Source: Methanosarcina barkeri str. Wiesmoor | Lineage (GTDB): Archaea; Halobacteriota; Methanosarcinia; Methanosarcinales; Methanosarcinaceae | Reading direction: 5' to 3' | Assembly: GCF_000969985.1 (NCBI RefSeq) | Contig: NZ_CP009526.1 | Coordinates: forward strand, 3,534,001-3,598,000 | DNA length: 64,000 nt | Shown here: in pieces, positions 7,755 to 34,644 of the stretch | Numbering within the stretch: position 1 is the stretch's first letter | How the letters are laid out: each line of letters opens with the position of its first letter | The notes under the pieces: model-generated | Told to the model about the DNA's origin: nothing | Databases searched by the model: none | The model's input: the letters and a program-made list of their open reading frames with translations, nothing else | Program-made: the position numbers and the translations under genes

Positions 7755-8177
7755 ATGAATAAGAAGAAGACAATATATCTTGCAGGCCCCCTCTTCAGCC
7801 ATGCAGAACTTGATTATAACCGTAAACTGAAGGATTTACTGCTCAGGAAAGGCTTTTCGGTTTTTTTGCCCCAGGAAGATGCAGAGGATACCATAAACGA
7901 ACGCGAAAAACTGAACCAGGAGTGTATTTTCAATAAATGTGTAGAAGGTGTGGACGGTTCTGATATTGTAGTTGCAGTCCTTGATGGTGTAGATGTAGAC
8001 TCAGGAACTGCCTGGGAGATAGGCTACGCTTATGCAAAGGAAAAGCCGGTTATCGGGGTTCGAACAGATTTTCGTTCTCTCTCCGACGGAATTGTTAACC
8101 TTATGGTAGAGATGGCTATAGTCTCCCTTGCAAAGAATGAAGACGAACTGCTGAAAATAATAGAAAAATTCCGGTAA
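7755..8177 (+). CDS. Nucleoside 2-deoxyribosyltransferase family protein
   Basis: This 140-aa protein matches the nucleoside deoxyribosyltransferase fold (N-glycosidic bond exchange or hydrolysis in nucleotide salvage). YLAGPLFSHAELDYNRKLKDLL forms the N-terminal nucleotide-binding strand and helix. GSDIVVAVLDGVDVDSGTAWEIGYA holds the family signature, with Glu88 in the position of the catalytic nucleophile and Asp82 nearby. PVIGVRTDFR is the usual next strand. The ATG start at 7755 has AGGAAG upstream. Family members include DNPH1-like hydrolases, so transferase versus hydrolase activity is open. It appears to be monocistronic. Confidence 0.88.
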   Translation: MNKKKTIYLAGPLFSHAELDYNRKLKDLLLRKGFSVFLPQEDAEDTINEREKLNQECIFNKCVEGVDGSDIVVAVLDGVDVDSGTAWEIGYAYAKEKPVIGVRTDFRSLSDGIVNLMVEMAIVSLAKNEDELLKIIEKFR

Positions 8178-8249
8178 CTATTACTGGCTTCTAACTGTTT
8201 CTGTTCCCTAAAGTTTTGGTCCCAACTTTTCTTTGGTCCCAACCTTCTT

Positions 8250-8915
8250 TTCCCAGAGCTACTTTTGACCTGAACTACTTTTTCCGTTCATCAGAATTTA
8301 CTCTTGAAGACAAAATCACAGATAACATATCAGGAAATCAAATTTGTGTTGGCGCACTCCATTCTCCCCACTATCCATTAAATTACGGACCACTTTTTTG
8401 AACTCCTGTTCATATGTAACAAAGTCTTTATGGATAAGAGGAATTCAAAGCGCCTCAGACTGTGCATAAACCAGGTAAGGAATAATGTCATGGGAACCAC
8501 GCCTCTGAATTCCCCTGAAGTTCAGAAGATGGGAGACCTTCAAAAGGTGGGATACCTCAAAACCTTTCGAGAGTGCCCTATAACATGCGAGACAACCATC
8601 CTTTCCGCCGGTCCATGAAACAATCACATGACCTGTATATTTCTTGCTTTCATTGATATTGCTTTCATTGATATTGCTTTCATTGATATTGCTTTCATTG
8701 ATATTGCTTTCATTGATATTGCTTTCATTGATATTGCTTTCATTGATATTGCTTTCATTGATATTGCTTTCATTGATATTGCTTTCATTGATATTGCTCT
8801 TATCGATATTGTTTTCATCGATATGGCTTTTATCGTTCGTAGTTGAAGTTAGGAAAGCACGATTATCCGTGAGCGGAAACAAAGAGAATGAAGAGGAGTT
8901 ATAAAGATGACCCAT
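8250..8915 (-). pseudogene. Decayed diphthine-ammonia-ligase-like PP-loop ATPase with repeat expansion
   Basis: The open part (8445-8915) encodes a leader, a block of pentapeptide repeats, then VIVSWTGGKDGCLACYRALSKG, a PP-loop motif of the diphthine-ammonia ligase (DUF71) family. The frame continues to AQSEAL and stops at a TGA (8445-8447). Reading through that stop restores family-like sequence, IPLIHKDFVTYEQEFKKVV, so a sense codon (probably GGA, Gly) has become TGA. Further downstream (minus sense) the frame meets more stops and resemblance fades by about 8250. Intact family members are roughly 220-250 aa and begin just before the PP-loop. The pentapeptide block between the ATG and the PP-loop is not a family feature. 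I read it as a dead gene. Confidence 0.75.
8646..8840. repeat. 15-bp tandem repeat, ten perfect plus three degenerate copies
   Basis: The unit GCTTTCATTGATATT is repeated perfectly ten times (8646-8795), then in degenerate form (8796-8840). On the minus strand it encodes NINES pentapeptides inside the PP-loop pseudogene. Because the unit is a multiple of three and lacks stops, several frames stay open on both strands; the plus-strand frames rich in FIDIA or SLILL are artefacts of the repeat. Confidence 0.95.
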
Positions 8916-10282: not shown

Positions 10283-10436
10283 CTTACTAACTCTTCTTAC
10301 TAACTCTTCTTACTAACTCTTCTTACTAACTCTTCCTACTCTAACTCTTCTTACTAACTCTTCCTACTCTAACTCTTCTTACTAACTCTTCTTACTAACT
10401 CTTCTTACTAACTCTTCTTACTCTAACTCTTATTCT
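10283..10436. repeat. 13-bp tandem repeat array
   Basis: The unit TTACTAACTCTTC recurs about eleven times. A 15-bp variant (CTACTCTAACTCTTC) is interspersed. There are no spacers of unique sequence, so it is not a CRISPR array. It is pyrimidine-rich on the plus strand and non-coding. Confidence 0.9.
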
Positions 10437-10456
10437 TAGCAAAATATTGCTATTGA

Positions 10457-10573
10457 CAGAAAATAGCGATCAAAAGATTGACTGCAGAACTTTCTGAGCA
10501 ATTCAGAAAATCAGCGGAGCCGGAGAAGAAAATTAAAGAAAACCTGCAGGGCTTGGGTATAAACTCTGATTAG
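10457..10573 (+). pseudogene. Probable C-terminal remnant of type I restriction methylase HsdM
   Basis: An open stretch of 38 codons without a start reads IKRLTAELSEQFRKSAEPEK, then KIKENLQGLGINSD and a stop. This coiled, charged end followed by a short GLG-type tail resembles the C-terminus of HsdM subunits of type I restriction systems. A TGA lies directly upstream in the frame and nothing of the methylase domain is left. The assignment rests on remembered family endings and is tentative; the coding character is clearer than the identity. Confidence 0.4.
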
Positions 10574-10987: not shown

Positions 10988-12082
10988 ATGAACCATGATG
11001 AAGACAGTAAAGTTGGTGAAGATGAGTTATCCTTGTCCGAGTTTCTCGTGCCGGATACAACGGAGATAAAGGAAATAAAAAGTATTTACGAGAATGAATA
11101 CGAATATAGCGAGTATCTGAGTGAAATCGAGATTTCAATTGCCGAATATTACTACAACTATAACCGAAAGTTAACGGATAAAGATGTCATAAAGGCATTG
11201 AAGAATATCAAGCTAAACCGCGACAAGCAAATTAGTTTCTTTGAAAAAGCCCTTGAAAAAAAAATTGTAAAAAGCCTTGTCGAACCTCTTGAGGAAAACC
11301 TGCTTTTCGACCATGAATTCACCCTTGTCATTGACTATGTTTTGTGGGTCATTGATAACAGGTCCTGGATTGAGGACAAACAAGCTTATGTTAAGTGGAT
11401 CACATATGTCCTTGGCTTTTTTTCAGAGGAAGAAGAGAAAAAATACGAAAGGCAGTTCAAAAGATTTGCACGCAAAATGGGCATATCCGGGGCTCAGGTT
11501 GATATGCTTCTCATGAAAAAAGAAATGGCTGATGATTTCTTTGACGAGGAAGATATTTTTGGAGAAAGCTTATTAGAAGTGCTTGATCCAGACGAAATTT
11601 TTAGCGAGGAAAGAACAGCAGATGACCTTGAAACCGGTTTCTTTTTAATGAATGATGATGAAAAATTCGATTTCTTGCTGGACAAAGGCCCGGATTATGT
11701 TGAACTTGTCCAAGACTATGTCACGGAACTTGCGGAAAAAGAAGAGTTTGAGAAAATTCAGGACTTTTACAAAAAGTTCAATGAAAAGAATAAAAACTTT
11801 TTCCCTCTGCATTTTATTGTTGGGTCTGCCTACCTTAACAATGACCCTGCTCTTGCAATATCCTATTTTGAGAAAACTCTGAAGGCTACTGAAGATTCCG
11901 AAGAATTCCCCCCGGAAATGAGAGAGGAACTGAAAAGATATATGGATATTCTAACAAAACTCCTCCTTGAAGAAGCTACTGAAAAAGTTGAGGAAAAAGT
12001 CGTTGAAAGCAAAAAAAGCAAAAGGAGCCGGAAATCTGGAAAAAAAGCCTCAAAAAATAATTCTAAAAGCGAAAAAGTCTAA
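10988..12082 (+). CDS. Acidic protein of unknown function with TPR-like C-terminal helices
   Basis: This 364-aa protein is not recognised. It is acidic and helical through residue 340: the N-terminus has ENEYEYSEYLSEIEISIAEYY, the middle has FFDEEDIFGES and LEVLDPDEIFSEE. A segment near residues 278-300 (SAYLNNDPALAISYFEKTLK) looks like a TPR helix pair. The last 25 residues switch to a Lys/Ser-rich basic tail, which suggests nucleic-acid or membrane contact. There is no signal peptide. Upstream, TATAAATTA at about 10960 lies 26-28 nt before the ATG and no ribosome site is visible, so the mRNA may be leaderless. Confidence 0.72.
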   Translation: MNHDEDSKVGEDELSLSEFLVPDTTEIKEIKSIYENEYEYSEYLSEIEISIAEYYYNYNRKLTDKDVIKALKNIKLNRDKQISFFEKALEKKIVKSLVEPLEENLLFDHEFTLVIDYVLWVIDNRSWIEDKQAYVKWITYVLGFFSEEEEKKYERQFKRFARKMGISGAQVDMLLMKKEMADDFFDEEDIFGESLLEVLDPDEIFSEERTADDLETGFFLMNDDEKFDFLLDKGPDYVELVQDYVTELAEKEEFEKIQDFYKKFNEKNKNFFPLHFIVGSAYLNNDPALAISYFEKTLKATEDSEEFPPEMREELKRYMDILTKLLLEEATEKVEEKVVESKKSKRSRKSGKKASKNNSKSEKV

Positions 12083-12519: not shown

Positions 12520-13863
12520 ATGAATCAAGAGCTTATACTTGAGAATCTAAATGGTTTTGAATTTGAAGAACTTATAGCAGATATCTTTAGGAAGAAGGGA
12601 TTTAAAAACGTAGTAGTCACACAACGTACAAACGACGGTGGAAAAGATATCATAATGGATGAAGTTTCTCCTTATGGAGAAATAATTAAAGCTGTAGTGG
12701 AGTGTAAGCATCATAAAAATGGGATAGGAAGACCTGTAGTTCAAAAATTACATTCTGCTGTATCTACCTTAGAATACTCTGGAAAGAAAAAAGGGTATAT
12801 TGTATCTTCCAGTACTTTTACTGATACTGCTGTTGATTATGTAGAAAAAGTAAACAAACAATCAAACAATTTGGTATTAGAACTAATTGATGGTAAGAAA
12901 TTAAAAGAAATTGCATGTGATTTAGGTGTAAATTTAAAAAATGGTGTTATAGAAGCAATTAGTAATAAAAGCGTATCTTATTCTTCAGAATCATTTATTA
13001 AAACAAGCACTTTAGAGTCTAATTTTAACAATGTTAATAATATAAAAAAAGATCAAGTTTCAGTTGAAGATTTAAAAACCACATTTCATCCAATTTATTA
13101 TATCAATTATGATGTAGATTCACAGTGCTCCACCTCTGTAGGAGTAATACATGAAGAATCAGGAAACGGACAGTTAATAATTGATGGTAGAACCGGCAAT
13201 GAATTGAGAAAAGAACTTAGAAACTTTCTTTTAAAAAACATAAACAATGAAAAAGAAATTACAAATGGTAGTTGTTTACAATATAAATTAGAGTTTCAAA
13301 AAAATGAAAATGAGTTGAAAAATCAAGCAATTTCAGAAATCATTAATTCACGCACAAAAAACGTAACTTATAAAGGAAAAAATAATGTTACTTACAACAA
13401 AAAATGTACTCCAAGACCCAAAGATATTACTATCCATGACTGTAGATCATTGTATTATCCTGAATGGACTTTAAACATCAAAGCTAAACAAAAAAACTAT
13501 ATTGTATCATTTTTAGAATCAGCTGGAGACTTTATTAAATTAAGAAACGATACAAAAGTTTGTCAAATCTGCAATCATAAAATTGAAAAAAATAGATGGT
13601 ATTGCACATATTGTGGGTCTATCATTTGTAAAAAACACCTTAAAGTAACAAGACTTAGAAAAGCAAGGATTTGCACCAATTGTTCTATAACTAAAAGTTT
13701 TTTTGGCGCTAAAAAATATTTTGAGTCTAATGAGGAACTCGAAACTTTCAATAATTACTATGCATCATTGCCTCTGTATAAAAAAATATGGGAAAATTCT
13801 TACCTTGTATATTCTATTGTATTCATAATTATAATTGGACTTTATTTTTTGTTTTTGAATTAA
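12520..13863 (+). CDS. Mrr-like restriction endonuclease with zinc-binding domain and C-terminal membrane helix
   Basis: The 447-aa product begins with a restriction-endonuclease-fold domain of the Mrr type (about residues 8-125). NGFEFEELIADIFRKKGFKN is followed by GGKDIIMDE (Asp43) and VVECKHH (Glu61, Lys63), giving the D-ExK nuclease core. Residues about 130-340 are low-complexity, Asn/Lys-rich and unassigned. Near residues 346-392, CQIC...WYCTYCGSIICKKHL...CTNC makes a Cys/His zinc-binding, treble-clef-like domain. The extreme C-terminus (about 427-447) is one hydrophobic helix, YSIVFIIIIGLYFLF. Such nucleases usually act in defence against foreign or modified DNA. Base composition is markedly more AT-rich than neighbours, suggesting transfer. 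There is no partner methylase beside it. Confidence 0.82.
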   Translation: MNQELILENLNGFEFEELIADIFRKKGFKNVVVTQRTNDGGKDIIMDEVSPYGEIIKAVVECKHHKNGIGRPVVQKLHSAVSTLEYSGKKKGYIVSSSTFTDTAVDYVEKVNKQSNNLVLELIDGKKLKEIACDLGVNLKNGVIEAISNKSVSYSSESFIKTSTLESNFNNVNNIKKDQVSVEDLKTTFHPIYYINYDVDSQCSTSVGVIHEESGNGQLIIDGRTGNELRKELRNFLLKNINNEKEITNGSCLQYKLEFQKNENELKNQAISEIINSRTKNVTYKGKNNVTYNKKCTPRPKDITIHDCRSLYYPEWTLNIKAKQKNYIVSFLESAGDFIKLRNDTKVCQICNHKIEKNRWYCTYCGSIICKKHLKVTRLRKARICTNCSITKSFFGAKKYFESNEELETFNNYYASLPLYKKIWENSYLVYSIVFIIIIGLYFLFLN

Positions 13864-14666: not shown

Positions 14667-17600
14667 TTATGTAATTTTTATATATTCTGTTTTTGTTACC
14701 GTGTTCTTGCCTTTAACATTCTTTACTGTCAAGTTAACAGTATATGTTCCTGCCTTGGAATACTTGTGAATCGGATTCTGGTGGAATGACTTTGATCCGT
14801 CTCCAAAATCCCACCTCCATTTAGCAGGTATTCCTGTGCTTGTGTCAGTAAAAGTAACCTTTAATGGTGCTTTTCCTGATGTTGGATTCGCAGAAAAGTT
14901 TGCAACCGGTTTTGTTATTACTTTTATATATTCTGTTTTTGTTACCGTGTTCTTGCCTTTAGCATTCTTTACCGTCAAGTTAACAGTATATGTTCCTGCC
15001 TTTGAATATTTATGAACCGGATTCTGAAGGAATGACTTTGATCCATCTCCAAAATCCCATCTCCATTTAGCAGGTATTCCTGTGCTTGTGTCAGTAAATT
15101 TAACCTTTAATGGCATTTTTCCTGAGGTTGGAGTTGCAGAAAAGTTTGCAACCGGTTTTGTTATCACTTTTATATATTCTGTTTTTGTTACCGTGTTCTT
15201 GCCTTTAGCATTCTTTACTGTCAAGTTAACAGTATATTCCCCTGCTTTTGAATACTTATGAATCGGATTCTGGAAGTATGACTTTGATCCATCTCCAAAG
15301 TTCCAGAACCAGGAAGTTGGAGAGCCAGTACTTGTATCAGTAAATTTAACCTTTAATGGTGTTTTTCCGGAAGTAGGCGAGGCTGTAAATGCAGCTACTG
15401 GCTTTGCTGAAGATTGGCTACCAACATTAATGTACCCAGTTTTTACCTCCGAATCGCTTCCATCCTCGTTGGAAACCGTAAGGTTGACAGTGTAGGTACC
15501 GGCTGCAGTGTAAGTATGAGCAGGGTTCTGCTCGGTAACGTTAGTACCATCTCCGAAGTCCCAGAGCCAGGAAGTAGGTGAACCAGTCGACTGATCCGTA
15601 AAGTTGACAATGAGAGGCACAGTACCGCTCGTTACATCAGCTATGAATGCAGCAACCGGTTCTGCAGGCGTAGATGGTTCGGATACTGTGATATAATCGG
15701 TCTTTACCTCGGAATCGGTCCCGTTTGCATTTGCAACCGTAAGGTTGACAGTGTAAGTACCGGCTGAAGTATATGTATACGAGGGGTTCTGCTCAGTTGA
15801 GTCTATAGTTCCGTCGTTATTAAAGTCCCATTCCCATGTATCCGGCGATCTGGTGGACAGGTCGGTGAAATTCACAATCATAGGTCCGATTCCCGATGTC
15901 ACGTCGGCCTCAAAGTCCGCCACCGGTGCCTCTGTCAGCGGGTAACAGGCGACGCCGTTCCACGTCGGTGTGGTGAAGCCGGTAGCGCTTTCGTAGTAGT
16001 ACGCCACTAAGTTGGTGCACCCAGATGCCCATCTGCTGCCCATCGTCGGAGCGTTGCCCATGAACGTCATGGATGTCAGGGCGGTACAGCTGCGGAACGC
16101 ACTGCTGCCGATGCTGGTGACATTGTTTCCTATGGTCACAGAGGTAAGATTGGTGCAGTCGCGGAACGCGCTACCACCAATGCTGGTGACGCTGTCCGGG
16201 ATGGCTATCAAGGTCAGGGCAGTGCAGCCATAGAACGCACTGCTGCCGATGCTGGTGACATTATTTCCTATAGTTACAGTTGTCAGTCCAGAGCAGTCGC
16301 TGAATGCAATGTCGCCGATTGTTGTGACGCTGTCCGGGATGGTTACAGTTGTCAGTGCAGAGCATTGGCGGAACGCACTGCTACTAATGCTGGTGACATT
16401 GTTTCCTATGGTAACCGATGTCAGGGAGGTGCAGCCATAAAACGCACTGCTGCCGATGCTGGTAACATTATTTCCTATAGGCACAGAGGTAAGATAGGTG
16501 CAGCCATAAAACGCACTGCTGCCGATGCTGGTAACATTATTTCCTATAGGCACAATTGTCAGTCCGGAGCAGTCGCGGAACGCACTGTCGCCGATTGTTG
16601 TGACGCTGTCCGGGATGGTTACCGAACCGGTCTTTCCTGATGGACATTGTATCAACGTTGTGATGTCCTTGTTGTACAAGACTCCATCGATGCTAGCGTA
16701 TATACTGTTGTCGTTATCGACATCGATCGCGGTCAGAGCAGAGCAACCAGAGAACGCAGAACTGTCTATGTTCGTAACCCCGCTGCCGATGGTCACAGTT
16801 GTCAGTCTGGAGCAGTCCTGGAACGCATAGTCGAGGATGGTTGTGACGCTGTCCGGGATGGTTACAGTTGTCAGGGCAGAGCATTGGCGGAACGCAGAAT
16901 TACCTATGCTGGTGACACCGCTACCGATGTTCACTGAGGTAATGGAGATGCAGCCCTGGAACGCACTGCTGCCAATTTTGGTGACGCTGTCCGGGATGGT
17001 CACAGAGGTCAGGGCAGCGCAGCCCTGGAACGCATAGCTGCCGATGCTGATGACATTATTTCCTATGGTCACAGAGGTAAGGGCGATGCAGTCGCAGAAC
17101 GCAGAATTGCCGATGCTGGTGACATTGTTTCCTATGTTCACCGAGGTAATGGAGATGCAGCCCTGGAATGCGCTGGTGCCGATTGTTGTGACGCTGTCCG
17201 GGATGGTCACAGAGGTCAGGGCAGTGCAGCCGTAGAAAGCGCTGTCGCCGATTGTTGTGACGCTGTCCGGGATGGTTACCGAACCGGTCTTTCCTGATGG
17301 ACATTGTATCAACGTTGTGATGTCCTTGTTGTACAAGACCCCGTCGATGCTAGCGTACATACTGTTGTCGTTATCGACATCGATCGCGGTCAGAGCAGAG
17401 CAATCAGAGAACACAGAATTGTCTATGCTCGTAACCCCACTTCCGATGGTCACTGTTGTTAGTCCGGAGCAGTCTGGGAACACATAGCTGCTGATGGTTG
17501 TGACGCTGTTCGGGATGGCTACAGAACCGGTCTTTCCTGACGGACATCGTATCAAAGTTGTGACGTCTTTGTTGTACAAGACTCCATCGATGCTAGTGTA

Positions 17601-20315
17601 CACACTGTTGTCGGCATCGACATCGATCGCGGTCAGAGCAGAGCAATCAGAGAACGCAAAACTGCTGCTGCTCGTAACCCCGCCGATGCTCGTAACCCCG
17701 CCTCCGATGGTAACTATTGTCAGTCCAGAGCAGCCGCAGAACGCAGAGCTACCGATGCTGGTGACGCTGTCCGGGATGGCTACAGTTGTCAGAGCAGAGC
17801 AGCTTCGGAACGCGCTGGTGCCGATGTTGATGACACCGTCCGGGATGGTCACTGTTGTCAGAGCGGAGCAACCTTGGAACGCGCTGGCACCGATATTAGT
17901 GACACCGCTACCGATTTTCACTGTGGTCACCGAAGGACAGTTATAGAACGCCCCGTCGCTAATTGCTGTGACACCGCTGCCAATGGCCAATGTGGTCAGA
18001 GCAGAGCAACTAGAGAACGCATACTTGCCAATACTGATAACGCTGTTCGGGATGGTCATAGCTGTCAGAGCGGAGCAGCTCATGAATGCATAATCGCCTA
18101 TGTTTGTGACGCTGTTCGGGATGGTCACTGTTGTCAGAGCGGAGCAACCCTGGAATGCGCTGGTGCCGATAGTAGTGACAGGCAGTCCCTCGATCTCCGC
18201 GGGTATGATGACAATACCATCTGACCCTATGTATTTAGTGATGGTGATAGAGCTGCCGTCACTGGTGTAGGTAAAATCACTGGCAGGAGAGGCCTGCTCT
18301 TTCACGATGATGTAGTCGCTCTTGACTTCGTCACCGCTTCCTGCAGGGTTGCTCACCGTCAGATTGACGGTGTATGTTCCCGCGGTCGTATATGTGTAGC
18401 TCGGATTCTGCATCGTACTGTCAATTGTACCGTCATTGTTGAAGTCCCACTGCCAGGAGGACGGCGAGTTCGTAGACAGGTCAGTGAACTGCACGCTGCT
18501 TCCTATTAAAGTAGTCACTGGGTCAGCTGAGAAATCAGCCATAGGTGGCAAATATTCCACTGAGATCAGATTGACCCTGGTGACAGTATCCGAAGCCGCC
18601 AGGTTAGAGGCGGTCATAGTCACTGTATAGTTACCAGCGGCATTATATGTCCAGGGGGGATTCTGCTCGTACGAGTCGATTATGCCATCGGACTCGAAGT
18701 CCCAGGCCCAGCTGACTGGTCTGTTGGTGGTAAGGTCAGTGAACTGCACGGTCAGCGGAGCGGAGCCGCTGGTCACATCAACGGAGAAATCGGCTACCGG
18801 TGAGTCCGGCAGGACGGGGACAATGTAATCGGCCTTGGTTTCGGTGTTCGATCCACCGGTGTTGGATACCGTCAATGAGACAGTGTATGTGCCGGGGGCC
18901 TCGTAGGTGAACGAGGGGTTCTGCTCAGTTGAGTCCACAATCCCATCGTTATCGAAATCCCAGGCATAGTCAAGTATTACACCAGTGCTCTCATCATGGA
19001 ACTGTACCGTAAGCGGTGCGGTTCCGGAGGTCACATCGGCAGTGAAGTTAGCCACTGGTGCACTAACCACACCAATGTTGATGACGCCAACCGCCTCCAG
19101 GTCTAATCCGCCTGAACCCCAGGTCACCCAGCCATCATAGATGGGGTTGCCCTGGGAGTCCTTGAAGTCCCCGCTGCCCGGAATATCCACTATTCGGACA
19201 TAGTTGATGGAGTTAAGGTCTACGCTCCCATTCAGCACTTCGGGTGCCTGCGCAAGGTTGCTCAGGTCAAAGGGTGTGCCCCAGGAATCACCATAAGCAT
19301 TGACATGCTTCCCTACCAGGTTGTATACATCGGTGGGGTCTATACTCCCATATCCGCCTACTTGTCCGGAAGTCAGGGATATCGAGGGGAAGCGCGCAAA
19401 GACGATGCCGTCAGTGGATACCTCCACATAAGCTAGCTCGGCGAATATGCTCTCCGTGCCTGAGACGATGAAACCGTTCTCAAAAACCGCCAGGTCCGGT
19501 CCTTCGCCGTTAGCGATGGGCAAGTCGAACCCGAGGGTTACGGATCCAGGTAGTTCGCCTGCATTTATCTGATCTTGATCTAGATCTCCCAGGCTGACAA
19601 TGTCAAAGTTATCGCCGGTCACCGGACCGAGGGCCTTGCTCGGATCGGAAAACGGTGGCCCGATGCTCTGGTTAGCTGGAGAGTAGTCCACGACCGTGCT
19701 GGCCCAGGTTATAAATATAGGATTCACATTGCCGCAGTCGGTCTTGCCGTCACCGTTCGGACCTACGAAACCTGGTATCCCCGGATCGGGGGCTCCGGGA
19801 TTGGTGTTCTCCAGTGCGGTAGAATAAATATTGAGGATGGTCCCGTTGACGGTCACAGTGTCATCGCCTGTGGTATTTACCGTCCATGCAAATTCCTCCT
19901 CACTGGCAGATTCACCGGCAACATAGCTTGGTCCGTAGTCATAGGTACCGGATACCGTTTCGTCGGGCACTGTGACACTGTAAGTTATGGTGTCAGTGAC
20001 TCCGGTGAGGTTGACTGTGCCGTAAAAATCCAGGAATGTATAATCTTCCTCGGAAGTGTTCCAGATGTAACGTCCACTGTCAACTTCAGTAAGATTCCAG
20101 TCTGCAGGAAGGGCTTCATGTATTACGATGGAATCCTCGTCAGTATTGAAGGAAACTGTAAGGGTTACATTGTAGGTATTTCCGTCAGATACTTCTGAGG
20201 GAGTAATCGTTCTTGTTATTGTTGCTTCACCGGTAGCAACAGCTGGCATGGCCAGCATTGCTATGGAAAGTAAAAGCATGACTGTTGTCAGAACAAAAAA
20301 CCTTTTTTTTTGCAT
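14667..20315 (-). CDS. Giant secreted surface protein A: BspA-type LRR and PKD domains
   Basis: The 1882-aa product has a signal peptide (MQKKRFFVLTTVMLLLSIAM, cleavage near AVATG). Residues about 30-155 are a beta-rich Thr/Asp domain. Residues 155-415 form a module with PNGDGKTDCGNVNP, KALGP and ELAYVEVSTDGIVFARFP, like bacterial surface modules. Three PKD domains (about 415-670, WDFDNDG and YTY-x-TV patterns) precede roughly thirty BspA-type leucine-rich repeats (about 690-1450; consensus IGSSAFYGCTALTSVTIPDSV) broken by three DVDNDNSxYxSIDGVLYNKD inserts. Five PKD domains (about 1460-1882) end in KTEYIKIT. There is no C-terminal membrane anchor or sorting motif. The LRR DNA is visibly GC-richer than the PKD tails. 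Probably S-layer associated, binding or adhesive; the ligand is unknown. Confidence 0.88.
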   Translation of the reverse strand: MQKKRFFVLTTVMLLLSIAMLAMPAVATGEATITRTITPSEVSDGNTYNVTLTVSFNTDEDSIVIHEALPADWNLTEVDSGRYIWNTSEEDYTFLDFYGTVNLTGVTDTITYSVTVPDETVSGTYDYGPSYVAGESASEEEFAWTVNTTGDDTVTVNGTILNIYSTALENTNPGAPDPGIPGFVGPNGDGKTDCGNVNPIFITWASTVVDYSPANQSIGPPFSDPSKALGPVTGDNFDIVSLGDLDQDQINAGELPGSVTLGFDLPIANGEGPDLAVFENGFIVSGTESIFAELAYVEVSTDGIVFARFPSISLTSGQVGGYGSIDPTDVYNLVGKHVNAYGDSWGTPFDLSNLAQAPEVLNGSVDLNSINYVRIVDIPGSGDFKDSQGNPIYDGWVTWGSGGLDLEAVGVINIGVVSAPVANFTADVTSGTAPLTVQFHDESTGVILDYAWDFDNDGIVDSTEQNPSFTYEAPGTYTVSLTVSNTGGSNTETKADYIVPVLPDSPVADFSVDVTSGSAPLTVQFTDLTTNRPVSWAWDFESDGIIDSYEQNPPWTYNAAGNYTVTMTASNLAASDTVTRVNLISVEYLPPMADFSADPVTTLIGSSVQFTDLSTNSPSSWQWDFNNDGTIDSTMQNPSYTYTTAGTYTVNLTVSNPAGSGDEVKSDYIIVKEQASPASDFTYTSDGSSITITKYIGSDGIVIIPAEIEGLPVTTIGTSAFQGCSALTTVTIPNSVTNIGDYAFMSCSALTAMTIPNSVISIGKYAFSSCSALTTLAIGSGVTAISDGAFYNCPSVTTVKIGSGVTNIGASAFQGCSALTTVTIPDGVINIGTSAFRSCSALTTVAIPDSVTSIGSSAFCGCSGLTIVTIGGGVTSIGGVTSSSSFAFSDCSALTAIDVDADNSVYTSIDGVLYNKDVTTLIRCPSGKTGSVAIPNSVTTISSYVFPDCSGLTTVTIGSGVTSIDNSVFSDCSALTAIDVDNDNSMYASIDGVLYNKDITTLIQCPSGKTGSVTIPDSVTTIGDSAFYGCTALTSVTIPDSVTTIGTSAFQGCISITSVNIGNNVTSIGNSAFCDCIALTSVTIGNNVISIGSYAFQGCAALTSVTIPDSVTKIGSSAFQGCISITSVNIGSGVTSIGNSAFRQCSALTTVTIPDSVTTILDYAFQDCSRLTTVTIGSGVTNIDSSAFSGCSALTAIDVDNDNSIYASIDGVLYNKDITTLIQCPSGKTGSVTIPDSVTTIGDSAFRDCSGLTIVPIGNNVTSIGSSAFYGCTYLTSVPIGNNVTSIGSSAFYGCTSLTSVTIGNNVTSISSSAFRQCSALTTVTIPDSVTTIGDIAFSDCSGLTTVTIGNNVTSIGSSAFYGCTALTLIAIPDSVTSIGGSAFRDCTNLTSVTIGNNVTSIGSSAFRSCTALTSMTFMGNAPTMGSRWASGCTNLVAYYYESATGFTTPTWNGVACYPLTEAPVADFEADVTSGIGPMIVNFTDLSTRSPDTWEWDFNNDGTIDSTEQNPSYTYTSAGTYTVNLTVANANGTDSEVKTDYITVSEPSTPAEPVAAFIADVTSGTVPLIVNFTDQSTGSPTSWLWDFGDGTNVTEQNPAHTYTAAGTYTVNLTVSNEDGSDSEVKTGYINVGSQSSAKPVAAFTASPTSGKTPLKVKFTDTSTGSPTSWFWNFGDGSKSYFQNPIHKYSKAGEYTVNLTVKNAKGKNTVTKTEYIKVITKPVANFSATPTSGKMPLKVKFTDTSTGIPAKWRWDFGDGSKSFLQNPVHKYSKAGTYTVNLTVKNAKGKNTVTKTEYIKVITKPVANFSANPTSGKAPLKVTFTDTSTGIPAKWRWDFGDGSKSFHQNPIHKYSKAGTYTVNLTVKNVKGKNTVTKTEYIKIT

Positions 20316-21875: not shown

Positions 21876-24800
21876 TTATGTAATTTTTATATATTCTGTT
21901 TTTGTTACCGTGTTACGTCCTGCTGCATTCTTTACTGTTAAGTTAACCGTATATGTTCCTGCCTTTGAATACTTGTGAATCGGATTCTGGTGGAATGAAT
22001 CTGATCCATCTCCAAAGTCCCAGCTCCATTTAGCAGGTATTCCTGTACTTGTGTCAGTAAATTTAACCTTTAATGGTGCTTTTCCTGATGTAACACTGCT
22101 GTTGAAGTTTGCAACCGGTTTTGTAATCACTTTTATATATTCTGTTTTTGTTACCGTGTTTTTGCCTTTAGCATTCTTTACTGTCAAGTTAACAGTATAT
22201 GTTCCTGCTTTTGAATATTTGTGAACCGGATTCTGAAGGAATGACTTTGCTCCGTCTCCAAAGTCCCATCTCCATTTAGCAGGGATTCCTGTGCTTGTGT
22301 CAGTAAAAGTAACCTTTAATGGTGCTTTTCCTGAGGTTGGACTCGCAGAAAAGTTTGCCACAGGTTTTGTAATCACTTTTATATATTCTGTTTTTGTTAC
22401 CGTGTTCTTGCCTTTAGCATTCTTTACTGTCAAGTTAACAGTATATATTCCTGCCTTTGAATACTTGTGAACAGGATTCTGTAGGAATGACTTTGACCCG
22501 TCTCCAAATTTCCAGAACCAGGAAGTTGGAGAGCCAGTGCTTGTGTCAGTAAATTTAACCTTTAATGGCGTTTTTCCTGAAGTAGGCGACGCAGTAAATG
22601 CAGCTACCGGCTTTGCTGAAGATTGGCTACCAACATTAATGTACCCAGTCTTCACCTCTGAATCACTCCCTTTTGCATTTGTAACCGTAAGGTTGACAGT
22701 GTAGGTACCGGTTGCATTATAGGTATGCGAAGGGTTCTGCTCAGTTGAGTCCACAGTTCCGTCGTTATTAAAGTCCCACGAATAGGACGAAACGGTGCCT
22801 GTGGACTGGTCGGTGAAATTGACTGTCAATGGCGCATTACCTGATGTTATGTCTGCAGAGAAGTCAGCAACAGGCGAAGAGAGAGAGTCCTTGAAGGCAT
22901 AGACTTTCTGATCCGCTCCGATACTGAAAAGCATACCGTCCGAAAGTGCTGGGGTAGATCCTGCATGTGGAGTGTGCCAGGCTACTTCTCCCGTAAAGGC
23001 GTCCAGAGCATAGAGGTCATTGTAACCGAAGTATCCGTTGCCTTCGGTTCCGACGTAGACAAGCCCGTCAGCTACCGCAACAGAACATGTCCAGCCTCCT
23101 ATTCCCCCGTTCTCTCCTGTCAGGGAAGGGGTTTCCCAGACTTTTTCTCCCGTACTTGCGTTGAAGCAGTAGGTCTGCACATTGGAAAAACCAGAGCAGC
23201 CTCCACAAACATAGACATTTCCGTAGGCAAATGCAGGAGTTGAGTCTGTCCTTTCGATATTTTGCTGCCAGATTATGCTCCCGTCAACAGCGTCCAGGGC
23301 AAGAAGGTCTCCGTCTCCGTAGAAGTTGTAGGTTGTCAGGTAGAGGACCCCGTCTTTATAAGCAGGGGATCCACAGAAATTCTGTTCTATATTATTAATG
23401 TGCCATACCTGATCTCCTGTTACTGCGTCCACGCAGTAAGCATGGCCTGCATAAGAAGTCCCATATCCCCAGCTTGTCAGGTAGAACTTTCCGTCCGCGT
23501 ATGCAGGGACGGACTGAGCATCTCCGACGACTTCAAAACTCCAGAGCAAGTATCCGGTGTATTCGTCAAGACAGTAATAATGGCTTCCATCCCAATCGCT
23601 AAAGATTACCATACCATCCGCAATAGCAGGTCCACTATTAACCGCACCCTGACTTCCCACAGTATCATTGAAACACCAGATTTTTTCTCCGGTTTCTGCG
23701 TCGTAACAGCCAAGTTCGGGGCCAGTGGCCGTAAAGACCATGCCGTCATCATAAGCAGGGGAAGCCCACGAACCGTATACGGCTTTCGGAATGCTGACGT
23801 TCCACAGAATATCTCCACTAAATTCGTCCAAGGCTACTAACTGGGGAATATCCTCCGTGCTCTCTTCCATTCCTGCGGTCCCGCATATCACAAAGACTTT
23901 TCCTCCGGCCGCAACAGGGGAGGAACTGCTGATTGCATCAATGTCCTCACTTATCCACTCGGTCTGATTGGTCTTGGGCCCGCTTTCTGAGTAGCCAAGG
24001 TGGTCAACCTTTCCATGGAACTGGTACCAGGAATTCTCAGGAATGGACTCGTTTTTCTGCTCTTCAACATAATTTGAGTAGGGAAGGACCAGAGGGTACT
24101 TATCAGTTCCTGCATCAGCAGTGTAAGCCGTATCCCCTATACCGTCCCCATTTGAGTCGCTTCCTGCGTAGTCATCGTAGTAATTACCTATATACCCTGT
24201 CAGTTTTGTTCCATTCCAGACATATTCTACTGGTTCGGAGCTCTGGAAGAATGAGTCTGACCCTCCGGATATATGGTCGTTTGAACCTCCCATTTTCTTT
24301 CCATTGTTGTTGATGAAGGTGTTCTTATAGATCCGGTTGTCTCCTGTGCTATCAAGAACAGCTGCAAAGTCCCAGCAGTTGGAAATATTATTCTGCCGGA
24401 GAGTGTTTTCAGTTCCCTGTAACCATACCCCTTCGGCGCAGTCATCTATAAGGTTGTCTTCTATCAGTACGTTCTTTGCATTGACGTTAATTGCAAAGCA
24501 CATCTCTTCGGTCCCTGTAATTTCAAAGCCGCTGAACTCAACGCCGTCAGCACTTATGGTTACGCCTGAAGAGTCTATGAAACCCGAAGCGTTCAGGACA
24601 GGGTCCTTGATGCCTTTTAGAGTCAGATTCTTGTCGATGGTCAGGACTTCGTGATACTCCCCGGGATATACCTTGATGATGTCTCCGGAATCGGCTGAAT
24701 TAATAGCTGCCTGGATAGACTCCCCTCTTTTAATCGGCCAGGTAGTCGGAACTTTGACTGCGTAAATGTAGTCTTCGGCAACTTTTTTATCCGTCCCGTG

Positions 24801-27785
24801 TTCGTTCTGGACGGTAAGGGTCACTGTGTAAGTACCTTCTGCAGTATAGGTATGGACCGGGTTTACTTCAGTTGAAGTGTTTCCGTCCCCAAAGTCCCAG
24901 AGGAATTTGTTGGCGTTAAAGGATCTGTCTTTGAATGAAACAGTCAGAGGAAAAGAACCTGTCTGTTTGTCCGAACTGAAGTTTGCTTCTGGAGGAAGAG
25001 CCTCGCCCTGTCCGATGCAGTACAGGTATCCATTATCTGTTCCGTAGTAGACCTTTCCGTCGGAAAGAGCTGCACCCTGCAGGGTGTATGCAGAATCCTC
25101 CGGTGGGTTGTAGTGCCATGCAAGGGTCCCGTCAGGGTTCAGGCAGTAAATCGAGCCGTCAACTATGGCTTCTGTGAAATAGATGTACGGATCGCCATTC
25201 TCTACCGAAAGAACAGGTGAAGACTTTACTCCTCCGCTAATCGGAGTTTCCCAGATTACAGTTCCATCGGAATCGTTCAGGCAGAACATTGACCCGGTCT
25301 CGCCGTGTTCTCCATGTCCCACATAAACTCTTCCATCATACACAACAGGGGTAGATGTCGAAAAGCCAATTGAGGTTGCCCATCCACTATCAAGGAACTG
25401 CCCTGTATCAGGGTTAAACCCTACTTTGAAGCAGTAACCTGTTTCCTGTCCTCTTTCCGAAGAGGTGTACAGGGCACCTTCAGCGTAGGTTACGGAGCTT
25501 CGGAACATTCCAGGGTCGGAAAGTGCAAAAGAGATGTCGGAACTCTTGCTGAAGTCAACCTCATCTACGAAGGTACCTGTATCTTTTTCGAGGCAGACCA
25601 TTTTACCTTCGAAGACCGGGTAGACCAGGTAATTTCCGACAACTACTGCCCCGCTCCAGAGAAAACCTGACATGTTATTGTTTTCATGCTTCCAGACAAG
25701 GTTTCCGCTGTCGTCGTAGCAGTAGTAGTATTTGGTTCCGGTTCCTCCTTCAAGCCCGTCTCCGATGTAGAGTTTGTGGTCAGAATATGTGATTGGACAC
25801 TCCAGGTTGCCGTCGGTTACGTGTGCTTTCCAGAGCTCGTTTCCGTTTTCCTGGTCAAAAGCGTAGAGATTTCCTTCCATGGTAGGGACAAACAGTGTTC
25901 CGTTCCCGATGGCGGGGGTCGAGGTTTGTGTCAGGTCTCCGCCAAGTTCCTTTGACCAGATAAGGTCTCCGGTCTCTTTGTTAAATGCCCAGACAGAAGC
26001 GTTTCCGGCAGTTACGAAAACCGTATTTCCGGAAATCACTGGCGGGACATTTATGCCTCCGCTCCCGCAGGGTTCCTGCTCCGAAGAAGTCAGATTCTGC
26101 CAGAGGAGTTCCGGGTCCTGGGTTGGGACAGAATTGAATGTGTATCCGGTATGAGAGCTGTCTTTCTGGAACTGAGACCATCCGGATTCAGTAACCGTTT
26201 CGCTTACCGTAATATAGTTGGTTTTTGTTTCGGTGTCGGAACCCCCGTCACCTGTGACCGTCAGGCTGACGGTGTAAGTTCCTGTGCTGTTATAGATATG
26301 GCTCGGGTTTGTCTCGTTTGAGTCCACGGTTCCGTCTGAATCAAAGTCCCAGGCCCAGGAAGTTATTCCATCGCCTGAGGATAGGTCCGTGAACTGGACT
26401 GTCAGTGGTGCTGTACCGCTTGTCACATTCGCTGTGAAATTGGCAACTGGAGCTCCGGAAAGTGGTTCGCTTACGACGATGCACTCTGTCTTTACTTCAG
26501 AATCGCTTCCATCTGCATTTGCAACCGTAAGGTTGACGGTATAGTTTCCGGCTGATGCATATACATGTGAGGGGTTCTGCTCGGTATCAGTCGAATTGTC
26601 TCCAAAGTCCCATAGCCAGGATGTAGGTGTATTTGTGGACTGGTCAGTAAAATTAACCGTGAGAGGAGCATTGCCAGAAGTCGGTGTTGCTGAAAAGCCT
26701 GCAACTGGAGCTGAAGGCGTTTCGTGCGTTTCTGAACTCCCGTAGTTTTCATTTGAAGATATTAGCGGATCGTAGTCAGTGCCGAAACTGGAAGGCACAG
26801 TATAAGACATGTCACCGATTCCGTTTCCGTCACTGTCAGACCCTGAGTAGGCAGTGCCCCAGTAGTTGCCCAGGTATCCGGTGTGGGTTGTACCGTTGTA
26901 AGTGTATTCCATGGGTTCAGTGGAATTCCAATAGGTTATAGCTGGAGGTGTACCGGACATACCAGAAGTGTTCGCGAAATTGTTCAGGTATATTTTATTG
27001 CCATCACCCGCATTTTTCACAACGTTTATAGCAATTCCATTTGAAACTATATTGTTTCTTACTATAGTATTATTCTTTGCAGTTGTTGAATAAAGTGCAA
27101 TTGCTGCTCCTATATCGTTCAGGAAGGTGTTGTTTGCAACTGTGGAATTTTCCCCTCTTAGATAAACTGGATTGCAGTTGTTGAAAATATTGTTTTCAAT
27201 AATATTTTCAGTTGCTGTATTTGGGATATATAGAGAAAAAGCTGATGTAATATTTGAAACAATATTATTTTTAAAAGTATTGTTTTTTCCACCAATGCTA
27301 ATACCAGAATCAGAGCAATCATCAAATACACAATTTCTAACTATGCAGTCATTAGCGTTAATACTTATTGGACTCATTGGAACATTAATTGCCACATTTT
27401 GAATGATACAACCCGGACTTTGGTAGATTGTGATTCCGTTAGGTTTTTGCCCAGCAGTTTTTAGCATTCCTGTGAAATTCTCTATTACACAATTTGGTGC
27501 TGCCCCGTTACTTCCTCCTACACCTAATATCTGGCTATTGGACTTAATAATCACTCCATCTCTGCTCTCACCCTTGAATGTTAGATTCGGCACTTTAATA
27601 ATTTTATTATCGCCGATCTCATATACTCCATTCATGACAAAGATAGTATCTCCGTCTGCACAATTGTCCAGAGCATCTAAGATTTCCTGAGATGTGTCTA
27701 CATTCCAGGTCTTTGCCGATGCTGGTGACACTACCATTATTGAACTTAATATTACAATTATAAAAATATAATATATTGTTTTCAT
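21876..27785 (-). CDS. Giant secreted surface protein B: NosD beta-helix, PQQ propeller and PKD domains
   Basis: The 1969-aa product has a signal peptide (MKTIYYIFIIVILSSIMVV, cleavage near SASA/AK). Modules in order: NosD-type right-handed beta-helix (about 24-345, NTFKNNIVSNI repeats); two PKD (357-530); PQQ-type beta-propeller (about 532-925, opening WSQFQKDSSHTGY); PKD (933-1015); a second beta-helix (about 1015-1250, SIQAAINSADSGDIIKVYPG); a second propeller (about 1248-1640, WYQFHGKVDHLGY); four PKD (1637-1969) ending KTEYIKIT. The order is a near-duplication of helix-PKD-propeller. NosD helices often bind carbohydrate; the propellers need not bind quinone. It starts 233 nt after gene C without the long leader or a terminator between, so C and B are probably co-transcribed. 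No membrane anchor is seen. Confidence 0.88.
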   Translation of the reverse strand: MKTIYYIFIIVILSSIMVVSPASAKTWNVDTSQEILDALDNCADGDTIFVMNGVYEIGDNKIIKVPNLTFKGESRDGVIIKSNSQILGVGGSNGAAPNCVIENFTGMLKTAGQKPNGITIYQSPGCIIQNVAINVPMSPISINANDCIVRNCVFDDCSDSGISIGGKNNTFKNNIVSNITSAFSLYIPNTATENIIENNIFNNCNPVYLRGENSTVANNTFLNDIGAAIALYSTTAKNNTIVRNNIVSNGIAINVVKNAGDGNKIYLNNFANTSGMSGTPPAITYWNSTEPMEYTYNGTTHTGYLGNYWGTAYSGSDSDGNGIGDMSYTVPSSFGTDYDPLISSNENYGSSETHETPSAPVAGFSATPTSGNAPLTVNFTDQSTNTPTSWLWDFGDNSTDTEQNPSHVYASAGNYTVNLTVANADGSDSEVKTECIVVSEPLSGAPVANFTANVTSGTAPLTVQFTDLSSGDGITSWAWDFDSDGTVDSNETNPSHIYNSTGTYTVSLTVTGDGGSDTETKTNYITVSETVTESGWSQFQKDSSHTGYTFNSVPTQDPELLWQNLTSSEQEPCGSGGINVPPVISGNTVFVTAGNASVWAFNKETGDLIWSKELGGDLTQTSTPAIGNGTLFVPTMEGNLYAFDQENGNELWKAHVTDGNLECPITYSDHKLYIGDGLEGGTGTKYYYCYDDSGNLVWKHENNNMSGFLWSGAVVVGNYLVYPVFEGKMVCLEKDTGTFVDEVDFSKSSDISFALSDPGMFRSSVTYAEGALYTSSERGQETGYCFKVGFNPDTGQFLDSGWATSIGFSTSTPVVYDGRVYVGHGEHGETGSMFCLNDSDGTVIWETPISGGVKSSPVLSVENGDPYIYFTEAIVDGSIYCLNPDGTLAWHYNPPEDSAYTLQGAALSDGKVYYGTDNGYLYCIGQGEALPPEANFSSDKQTGSFPLTVSFKDRSFNANKFLWDFGDGNTSTEVNPVHTYTAEGTYTVTLTVQNEHGTDKKVAEDYIYAVKVPTTWPIKRGESIQAAINSADSGDIIKVYPGEYHEVLTIDKNLTLKGIKDPVLNASGFIDSSGVTISADGVEFSGFEITGTEEMCFAINVNAKNVLIEDNLIDDCAEGVWLQGTENTLRQNNISNCWDFAAVLDSTGDNRIYKNTFINNNGKKMGGSNDHISGGSDSFFQSSEPVEYVWNGTKLTGYIGNYYDDYAGSDSNGDGIGDTAYTADAGTDKYPLVLPYSNYVEEQKNESIPENSWYQFHGKVDHLGYSESGPKTNQTEWISEDIDAISSSSPVAAGGKVFVICGTAGMEESTEDIPQLVALDEFSGDILWNVSIPKAVYGSWASPAYDDGMVFTATGPELGCYDAETGEKIWCFNDTVGSQGAVNSGPAIADGMVIFSDWDGSHYYCLDEYTGYLLWSFEVVGDAQSVPAYADGKFYLTSWGYGTSYAGHAYCVDAVTGDQVWHINNIEQNFCGSPAYKDGVLYLTTYNFYGDGDLLALDAVDGSIIWQQNIERTDSTPAFAYGNVYVCGGCSGFSNVQTYCFNASTGEKVWETPSLTGENGGIGGWTCSVAVADGLVYVGTEGNGYFGYNDLYALDAFTGEVAWHTPHAGSTPALSDGMLFSIGADQKVYAFKDSLSSPVADFSADITSGNAPLTVNFTDQSTGTVSSYSWDFNNDGTVDSTEQNPSHTYNATGTYTVNLTVTNAKGSDSEVKTGYINVGSQSSAKPVAAFTASPTSGKTPLKVKFTDTSTGSPTSWFWKFGDGSKSFLQNPVHKYSKAGIYTVNLTVKNAKGKNTVTKTEYIKVITKPVANFSASPTSGKAPLKVTFTDTSTGIPAKWRWDFGDGAKSFLQNPVHKYSKAGTYTVNLTVKNAKGKNTVTKTEYIKVITKPVANFNSSVTSGKAPLKVKFTDTSTGIPAKWSWDFGDGSDSFHQNPIHKYSKAGTYTVNLTVKNAAGRNTVTKTEYIKIT

Positions 27786-30684: not shown

Positions 30685-30724
30685 AAAAAAGAAAGGAGGA
30701 AAACAGCCTTATTCGGCTGCCTCC
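30685..30724 (-). terminator. Terminator of surface gene D, overlapping its last codons
   Basis: In minus sense CGGAGGCAGCC-GAATAA-GGCTG-TTTT-CCTCC then TTTCTTTTTTG. The left arm is the coding sequence for the final EAAE residues, so the stop codon sits in the loop. Confidence 0.62.
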
Positions 30725-33700: not shown

Positions 33701-34644
33701 GAAGTGCTTGGCCCTATACTATGTGAAGCCTTATCGGTCCTGACAAACTTCCCTGTGCTTTTATCAAATCCTATTACACAGCAATATCCGGAGGTCGTCG
33801 TGAAGTAACAGCGACTGCTGTTTTCATCATATGACACCGACGACTGGATCTGGCTTCCGCTATTCGGTATCGAGAAGACAGCAGATACGTTAATCTCATC
33901 CACAAGCTCACCCGTATTCTTGTTGAGGGACGTCAGGTTCATATCCTCCCCTCCGAATACAAGGTAATCGCCGATTACTGCAGCTCCTGCCCAGTAATAA
34001 CCGTCTCCTTCATAACTCCAGCACTGGGTTCCATTGTCATAGTAGCAATAATAAGCAGATGGGTTCCCATAGCATGTTCCAAAATAGATCCGGTGGTCTT
34101 CATATACAACGGGGGTGTTTAACTGTGAATAAGACCCCCCAAGTCCTGTTATATTCCATAAAAGGTCCCCGTTTCTAATATCATATGCAGAGAGTTTTCC
34201 CCTGGAGCTTTCGGGGTAGAATATCGTTCCGTTACCGTAGCATGCAGGCCCAAGATTCTCTCCGGATGTAACGGTGTTCCATATATATTCTCCCGTCGTG
34301 ATGTTATGGACACTTATATTGTGGCTACACACGGATACTAAAAGATCATCTAAAACAAGGGGGTCCGTATTCATGTATCCCGTATGCGTAGACCATATCA
34401 GGTCAGGGTCATCAATAGGACCTGCCTGCGATGTAACCCCGGTGTGATAGAGGTTGTTCTTGAACATCACCGTATCCGATGAATCAGGCATAGGTGCGAC
34501 TGCAACAGGTGTTTCACCACCTTCTCCGCCTGATGAACCTCCGCCTAATAGCCAATCTGAAGTCATTGCAGATGCCGGGATAATTGCCATCATCAGAAGA
34601 AGTATTGTGCAAAGAATGGGTATTTTACTTTTCATTTTTTTCAT
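30709..34644 (-). CDS. Giant secreted surface protein D: two PQQ propellers, PKD, CARDB and intact C-terminal domain
   Basis: The 1311-aa product has a signal peptide (MKKMKSKIPILCTILLLMMA, cleavage near ASA). Modules: propeller 1 (about 50-450), two PKD (451-620), propeller 2 (about 630-985, opening WPQFQKDAQHSGF), PKD (986-1070), CARDB-type adhesion domain (1076-1180, PDLIVSSIIPPSGVNANTSC), and a C-terminal beta-sandwich (about 1190-1311, PSALDFGELYPG to FWAEAAE). Unlike A, B, E and F it lacks the repetitive PKD tail. Its C-terminal domain is the one whose 3' vestige lies behind the other four genes, so D probably keeps the ancestral end. It has its own long leader and a terminator overlapping the last codons. 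Confidence 0.88.
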   Translation of the reverse strand: MKKMKSKIPILCTILLLMMAIIPASAMTSDWLLGGGSSGGEGGETPVAVAPMPDSSDTVMFKNNLYHTGVTSQAGPIDDPDLIWSTHTGYMNTDPLVLDDLLVSVCSHNISVHNITTGEYIWNTVTSGENLGPACYGNGTIFYPESSRGKLSAYDIRNGDLLWNITGLGGSYSQLNTPVVYEDHRIYFGTCYGNPSAYYCYYDNGTQCWSYEGDGYYWAGAAVIGDYLVFGGEDMNLTSLNKNTGELVDEINVSAVFSIPNSGSQIQSSVSYDENSSRCYFTTTSGYCCVIGFDKSTGKFVRTDKASHSIGPSTSTPAIYNGRLYVGVGKMFKSGGEPCLFCLNASDLSEIWKYTANGIIQSSPTVSTYYENSTGDIYIYFTTNVKNGTVYCLRDNASNTDAMEVWHWTPPESMQQYVLGGAVIKQGYLFFGNNEWKGAAGCTFALKRSDSNPVVADFSAENTFGKAPLNVSFTDESTGYGIDGWLWDFGDNTTSNETNPYHIYENNGLYTVSLTVIGSGSSNTSTRTGLINVTDQITPVADFSYSVSGTQSPVSVEFTDTSYNTNSATTWSWDFGDNTTSNLQNPTHQYAEDGTYSVTLTVSSQYESNTVKKSGIIIVEPWNVPEWATNDSWPQFQKDAQHSGFSEGSAPSTATRLWVSDNIGAVRSSSVAVSGGRIFVNCNDNDTGMSVIRSLNQQTGAVLTDHGEADGGGFYGSWSSPVYDDGKVWCGLNNYPEGTTYNSVNGGTMVADGKVFSSNWKGNQYFCFEESTGEELWNFSAPVSSYAQSCPAYKDDKVYVLYWHGFSDDGENLVYCLNADTGEEIWKHANISSNPCGSPMITDDAVYFTTYNPEGESAQLYALNITDGSVLWSNTSITGTDSTPAYAYGNIYVSSGYSRYITYCFNATTGELVWETDPKDNIGFWTCSPAAADGKVYVGTGGSGLVCLDAYTGELIWQDKGGGSTPAIVDGVVYSVGKDGKVYAYSSSQSVADFTANTISGEAPLTVNFTDQSNGAESWSWDFDGDGNVDSTEQNPAHTYTAADNYTVNLTVTNAEGSNSKVKTDYITVTDSSTLGDQPDLIVSSIIPPSGVNANTSCNIGATINNIGASDAVIFNATLSVNGAVVDTSTVSGIVSGSSTAVNFSWKPVKSGDYSVKVSADAGDVIAESNETNNELTDSITVEEASSGSQKGSSSVSLNVTIIPVISLEVSPSALDFGELYPGKNSELQYLNLKNRGSCDVNVTAIVCDFSAGDELFSQGLMLDSQLWDNYWKVVGRNSQENTSVALQVPTDYAGSGNKKGTITFWAEAAE

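What the first reader, a model, noticed from the sequence alone, without database searches (positions are those of the whole stretch)
12520..13863. Membrane-tethered Mrr-type nuclease with a zinc-binding domain
The D43 / E61-x-K63 nuclease core is coupled through a long Asn/Lys-rich linker to a Cys/His zinc domain and a single C-terminal helix, in AT-rich DNA beside a probable hsdM remnant and repeats. A nuclease held at the membrane could cut incoming DNA at entry. I do not know this architecture as a described defence family.
Basis: partly seen in the sequence, partly recalled or inferred. Interest (0 to 1): 0.65.

Follow-up and report, generated by a model that had tools for sequence, protein, structure and literature searches.

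The report
Membrane-anchored Mrr-type nuclease of archaea
This gene encodes a DNA-cutting enzyme of the Mrr restriction type that carries an uncharacterised middle domain, a zinc domain and a membrane anchor at its tail; the same four-part design is conserved across salt-loving and methane-producing archaea, often on their plasmids, so it is probably an undescribed relative of restriction enzymes that attacks foreign DNA from the membrane, although no activity has been tested.

Summary
ORF 12520-13863 (447 aa) starts with an Mrr_cat PD-(D/E)XK nuclease (Pfam E 6e-27), followed by a Cys/His zinc domain and a C-terminal transmembrane helix. The hsdM remnant is also real: it lies at 10474-10570, and a sister species keeps an intact hsdM there.

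The "long linker" is not a linker. Residues about 183-340 are a conserved domain distantly related to PepSY-type archaeal proteins.

All four parts are conserved together in full-length homologues: 4 of 31 species of the window's genus, one other genus of its family, about 45 haloarchaeal genomes, and at least 70 of 72,556 PLSDB plasmids, including one from Methanocaldococcus. The catalytic D/E/K and eight zinc ligands are near-invariant, dN/dS is about 0.2-0.3, and the most hydrophobic segment is at the extreme C-terminus in every full-length member. Haloarchaeal copies move between host families. Most sit alone in plasmid backbones. The closest copy outside the genus ends a UvrD/McrC/McrB-like gene run beside BREX genes.

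Best reading: a tail-anchored, Mrr-type DNA restriction enzyme. Cutting DNA at entry is plausible (bacterial SNIPE is a precedent) but untested. I found no description of this architecture. New variant of a known kind.

The parts
12520..13863 (+). Gene for the 447-aa tail-anchored Mrr-type nuclease
   Evidence: full-length homologues
12541..12912 (+). Mrr_cat PD-(D/E)XK nuclease domain, residues 8-131, with D43, E61 and K63
   Evidence: Pfam 6.1e-27; residue conservation
12952..13065 (+). Variable Asn/Ser-rich linker, residues about 145-182
   Evidence: poorly conserved columns in A1
13066..13539 (+). Middle domain, residues about 183-340, distantly PepSY-like, with invariant NNV.Y...C.P...D motif
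13561..13683 (+). Zinc domain, residues 348-388: C-x2-C-x10-C-x2-C-x4-C-x2-H-x11-C-x2-C (FYVE/zinc-ribbon-like spacing)
13801..13857 (+). C-terminal transmembrane tail anchor, residues 428-446
   Evidence: hydropathy in all full-length members; helix 418-446, pLDDT about 84, in an otherwise unusable single-sequence model
10474..10570 (+). Remnant of the hsdM 3' end (last 30 or so codons); intact hsdM in sister genome G029
10283..10440 (+). 13/15-bp tandem repeats next to the hsdM remnant
10988..12082 (+). Upstream 364-aa gene, no Pfam match; present in 24 of 31 species of the genus irrespective of the nuclease, so not a partner

Best explanation
A single-protein restriction enzyme held on the cytoplasmic face of the membrane by a C-terminal tail anchor. 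The N-terminal Mrr-type PD-(D/E)XK domain cuts DNA. The PepSY-like middle domain and the cross-brace-type zinc domain most likely recognise a DNA feature or a membrane-proximal partner and control the cut. It probably attacks foreign DNA (virus genomes or incoming plasmids), and haloarchaeal plasmids carry it as a weapon against rival elements or as protection for the host. Shown here: the domain order and its conservation, near-invariant catalytic and zinc residues, purifying selection, and the hydrophobic tail in every full-length member. Inferred: DNA cleavage, zinc binding, membrane insertion with the nuclease inside, restriction function, and action at DNA entry.
For: Mrr_cat in 38 of 38 aligned proteins. 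D43/E61/K63 kept in 35, 37 and 38 of 38. PADLOC type IV mREase and PDC-S02 models match the nuclease part in 21 of 21. dN/dS 0.31 with G029, 0.18 with G001, 0.21 with G006. C-terminal hydrophobic segment in all full-length members. Patchy: 4 of 31 species of the genus plus a remnant in G005. Next to an hsdM remnant here and an intact hsdM in G029. In G403 (50% identity) it is the last of four co-directional genes, UvrD-PDDEXK, McrC, McrB-like AAA, nuclease, beside PglZ and BrxL. Two haloarchaeal copies also follow a UvrD-PDDEXK gene. Plasmid-borne with transfer between host families. No match in phage records and no full-length one in viral contigs. SNIPE shows that a membrane-bound nuclease can cut phage DNA during injection (PMC13190303).
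Against: No activity is known. Most haloarchaeal copies lie among plasmid backbone genes (DUF6166 and small hypotheticals) and not in defence islands. A related two-domain archaeal family keeps the middle domain but has lost the catalytic Glu, so that domain also serves non-nuclease roles. The structure could not be modelled (mean pLDDT 36). The winged-helix N-domain of classical Mrr is absent.
Confidence: 0.55

Rival explanations
1. Plasmid maintenance or transfer function: the protein acts on the plasmid's own DNA at the membrane (entry processing, replication or segregation), with no defence role.
For: Many copies sit in a shared haloarchaeal plasmid backbone (cluster 1/DUF6166 near 21 of the loci); next to MCM on pMEFER01 and near orc1/cdc6 on two plasmids.
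Against: About ten haloarchaeal genomes and the genomes of the window's genus carry it on the main chromosome; the genes around it vary even among plasmids; no conserved partner was found; in G403 it lies with McrBC-like and BREX genes.
Confidence: 0.2
2. Abortive-infection effector: normally silent, activated by membrane or DNA damage signals through the PepSY-like and zinc domains, then degrades the cell's own DNA.
For: Tail anchor and extra sensor-like domains; Mrr of E. coli is known to damage host DNA under stress (my own knowledge, not tested here).
Against: No immunity or partner gene is conserved; nothing here separates self from non-self targets.
Confidence: 0.15
3. Non-catalytic membrane sensor built on a nuclease fold, annotated as a restriction endonuclease only by homology.
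For: A related REase-fold plus PepSY-like family (A6) has lost the catalytic Glu; Pfam NA-iREase1, an inactive REase family, also matches weakly.
Against: D43, E61 and K63 are near-invariant in this family and the nuclease domain is under purifying selection.
Confidence: 0.08

Closest known systems
Mrr type IV restriction enzymes (E. coli Mrr, Haloferax volcanii Mrr; persistent Mrr group HG9 of Methanosarcina, PMC10609329)
   Same: Mrr_cat PD-(D/E)XK catalytic domain with D, E-x-K
   Different: Here the nuclease is N-terminal, with no winged-helix N-domain, and is followed by PepSY-like, zinc and transmembrane parts. The genome also has Mrr_cat genes elsewhere, the best at C2:119871-120230.
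SNIPE (PMC13190303)
   Same: Single-protein membrane-bound nuclease; working model of cutting DNA as it enters
   Different: SNIPE is bacterial, with a GIY-YIG nuclease, DUF4041 and an N-terminal membrane segment; this is archaeal, with a PD-(D/E)XK nuclease and a C-terminal anchor. No domain is shared.
COG4741 archaeal nucleases (PMC1189080, proposed as a membrane-associated guardian against foreign DNA)
   Same: Archaeal PD-(D/E)XK nuclease with one transmembrane helix, nuclease predicted cytosolic
   Different: COG4741 has an N-terminal helix and a minimal YraN-like nuclease at the C-terminus, and no zinc or PepSY-like domain is described.
PADLOC PDC-S02 candidate proteins and mREase_IV
   Same: The nuclease domain matches (E 2e-14 and 3e-8)
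   Different: Only the nuclease portion of those models is covered; the rest of the architecture differs.
Archaeal REase-fold plus PepSY-like proteins (A6 family, 350-420 aa)
   Same: Homologous over nuclease fold and middle domain (hhalign 97%, E 1.5e-11)
   Different: Catalytic Glu lost; no zinc ligands and no C-terminal anchor in the copies read.

Membership tests
Mrr-type (type IV) restriction endonuclease | Mrr_cat domain with PD-(D/E)XK residues | tested here: met
   PF04471 6.1e-27; D43/E61/K63 conserved
Mrr-type (type IV) restriction endonuclease | Winged-helix N-terminal domain of classical Mrr | tested here: not met
   Mrr_cat starts at residue 8; no other domain precedes it
Mrr-type (type IV) restriction endonuclease | Cuts modified DNA and restricts foreign DNA | not testable with these tools
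   needs biochemistry and plating or transformation assays
SNIPE | GIY-YIG nuclease plus DUF4041 | tested here: not met
   neither domain in Pfam scans of P0001 and 37 relatives
SNIPE | Membrane localisation | tested here: inconclusive
   predicted tail anchor in all full-length members; localisation not shown
COG4741 membrane nuclease | N-terminal transmembrane helix followed by minimal C-terminal nuclease | tested here: not met
   nuclease at residues 8-131, helix at 428-446
FYVE zinc finger | Eight-ligand cross-brace spacing | tested here: inconclusive
   FYVE chains are the top PDB hits of the family profile, E 0.03 upward, but Pfam FYVE scores 14.4 bits against a cut-off of 27.8 and zinc-ribbon models score similarly
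FYVE zinc finger | R(R/K)HHCR phosphoinositide-binding motif | tested here: not met
   RWYCTYCG here, TYCxNCG in haloarchaea
PepSY domain | Match to Pfam PF03413 | tested here: inconclusive
   no direct match of the middle domain; homologous A6-type proteins score 18.6-23.1 bits against a cut-off of 24

The most novel reading that the evidence does not exclude
An undescribed archaeal entry-restriction system: a tail-anchored Mrr nuclease whose PepSY-like and zinc domains detect DNA or secretion machinery at the membrane and cut virus or conjugative DNA as it enters. It would be the archaeal, PD-(D/E)XK counterpart of SNIPE, spread by haloarchaeal plasmids.
Probability: 0.25. Interest if true: 0.8.

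Novelty: new variant of a known kind. Interest (0 to 1): 0.52.

Why it matters
If it works as proposed, a widely spread archaeal gene now labelled only "restriction endonuclease" would show that archaea tell foreign from own DNA by where it is, at the membrane, as SNIPE does in bacteria, with an unrelated nuclease. It is present on plasmids of laboratory haloarchaea (Halobacterium salinarum NRC-1 VNG_RS11845 and R1 OE_RS11340; Haloarcula marismortui pNG600 and Natrinema sp. J7-2 pJ7-1), so the idea can be tested directly, and it may help explain restriction barriers in archaeal genetics.

Tried and rejected
Single-sequence AlphaFold model: mean pLDDT 36, unusable apart from the C-terminal helix. 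Virus origin: no phage record matched; viral-contig scans gave no full-length relative, only proteins sharing the Mrr_cat domain. Upstream 364-aa gene as partner: rejected, present in 24 of 31 species of the genus. Middle domain against PDB and Pfam directly: nothing significant. Copies of the genus share part of the flanking DNA but the downstream side in the window differs, so no mobile-element boundary was defined. Genome-contig scan gave only Mrr-domain neighbours and one doubtful partial match. Literature searches found no paper describing this architecture, within an open-access library only.

Full report
WHAT IS THERE. The ORF 12520-13863 on the + strand encodes 447 aa. Residues 8-131 are an Mrr_cat PD-(D/E)XK domain (PF04471, E 6.1e-27, 94.5 bits, cut-off 21). 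No Pfam family passes its cut-off in residues 150-447, and NCBIfam has no match at all.

THE FAMILY. Searching with the C-terminal 289 residues alone, without the nuclease, finds 50 of 393 genomes of the phylum; most of the encoded proteins align end to end with P0001. Full-length copies are in G029 (94%), G001 (85%), G006 (83%, split over two contigs), G403 (50%, another genus of the same family) and some 45 haloarchaeal genomes, at 29-34% in those aligned. Plasmid records show the same: 77 with a match, 71 covering at least 80% of the query, and 72 records matched by the C-terminal part alone. Those listed are haloarchaeal apart from Methanocaldococcus fervens pMEFER01. They are annotated "restriction endonuclease". 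No phage record matches, and scans of viral contigs gave no full-length relative.

ANATOMY. In the 38-row alignment A1 the catalytic residues D43, E61 and K63 are kept in 35, 37 and 38 rows; the D43 exceptions are the distant L093-L095 group. The eight zinc ligands C348, C351, C362, C365, C370, H373, C385, C388 are kept in 35-38 rows. Their spacing resembles FYVE fingers: FYVE chains lead the PDB list for profile A2, but at E 0.03 and worse, and zinc ribbons score similarly. I therefore call it a zinc domain of FYVE or zinc-ribbon-like spacing, not a FYVE finger; the FYVE lipid-binding motif is absent. That domain is homologous to part of a family of 350-420-aa archaeal proteins (A6): hhalign A2 against A6 gives 97% and E 1.5e-11 over nuclease fold and middle domain, A4 against A6 97%. 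Single A6 members score just below the PepSY cut-off, so "PepSY-like" is a lead and not a proven assignment. A6 proteins lack the catalytic Glu. A third group of about 540 aa joins N-terminal zinc ribbons, Mrr_cat, the middle domain and a row of C-terminal Cys/His clusters. The most hydrophobic 19-mer lies within 6 residues of the C-terminus in every one of the 37 sequences printed, as expected of a tail anchor with the nuclease on the cytoplasmic side.

SELECTION AND AGE. Against G029, G001 and G006 dN/dS is 0.31, 0.18 and 0.21 over the whole gene, and below 1 in each of the four segments. Within the genus it is patchy: 4 of 31 species, plus a broken piece with in-frame stops in G005 at the matching place. 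GC is 27.8% against 42.9% for the window. On a FastTree tree of 55 copies, host family changes 24 times where 7 is the minimum and shuffled labels give 30 on average (lowest 25 of 500), and near-identical copies occur in different host families: frequent transfer among haloarchaea. The copies of the window's family form one group.

SURROUNDINGS. Window 10474-10570 matches the 3' end of an intact hsdM in G029 at 86%; that G029 gene carries N6_Mtase and HsdM_N. The 364-aa gene between remnant and nuclease is common in the genus without the nuclease. In G403 the nuclease gene ends a run of four co-directional genes with gaps of about 50 bp or less: UvrD helicase with PDDEXK, McrC (PF10117, 4e-75), a McrB-like AAA protein, then the nuclease; on the other side lie BrxL and PglZ of BREX. 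Two closely related haloarchaeal copies (L063, L080) also follow a UvrD-PDDEXK gene; that helicase is about 25% identical to the G403 one. Most other haloarchaeal copies sit in plasmid or variable surroundings, commonly a backbone with DUF6166 and small hypothetical genes, with no conserved partner. In 10 of 35 loci both flanking genes run in the opposite direction.

HOW IT PROBABLY WORKS. The conserved active site argues for DNA cleavage; the conserved tail argues for action at the membrane; the plasmid traffic, R-M remnant and G403 setting argue for conflict with foreign DNA. The most economical model is a one-protein restriction enzyme anchored at the membrane, with the middle and zinc domains giving specificity. 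SNIPE demonstrates the principle in E. coli with other domains (PMC13190303), and Kosinski and colleagues proposed it in 2005 for another archaeal family, COG4741 (PMC1189080). Steps not shown: cleavage, zinc binding, membrane insertion, target, protection. Rivals are plasmid maintenance or transfer, abortive infection, and a non-catalytic sensor.

NOVELTY. The catalytic domain and the idea of a membrane nuclease are known. The four-part architecture, its tail anchor and its archaeal plasmid distribution were not found described in the papers I could search, which excludes most subscription journals. Surveys of haloarchaeal and archaeal R-M genes discuss classical Mrr (PMC6471742, PMC10609329). 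Hence a new variant of a known kind, interest 0.52.

Noticed in passing
14667-20315 -, with other very long minus-strand ORFs at 21876-27785, 30709-34644, 36097-41625 and 43387-47208: Row of giant ORFs; the first is a PKD/BspA-type leucine-rich-repeat surface protein. The others were not scanned.
   Followed up: no
12520-12939 versus 12940-13863, compared with G029 (L056): Synonymous divergence from G029 is about three times lower in the nuclease part (dS 0.035) than in the middle and zinc parts (0.10-0.12); perhaps recombination, but only about three synonymous changes are involved.
   Followed up: no
10988-12082: 364-aa acidic protein without Pfam match, present in 24 of 31 species of the genus, often as several or broken copies.
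   Followed up: partly
L153, L155, L157, L158, L160, L100: Family of archaeal proteins with a nuclease fold lacking the catalytic Glu joined to the PepSY-like middle domain; function unknown.
   Followed up: partly
L093, L094, L095, L154, L159: About 540-aa proteins: zinc ribbon, Mrr_cat, middle domain and a long row of Cys/His clusters; another undescribed relative.
   Followed up: partly
L098 around 8135-8291: Broken remnant of the nuclease gene with in-frame stops at the matching place in G005.
   Followed up: yes
48512-49162: Fragment of an ISH3-family transposase.
   Followed up: no
8445-8915 -: 156-aa ORF with weak pentapeptide-repeat and diphthamide-synthase matches, perhaps a fusion or a decayed gene.
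   Followed up: no
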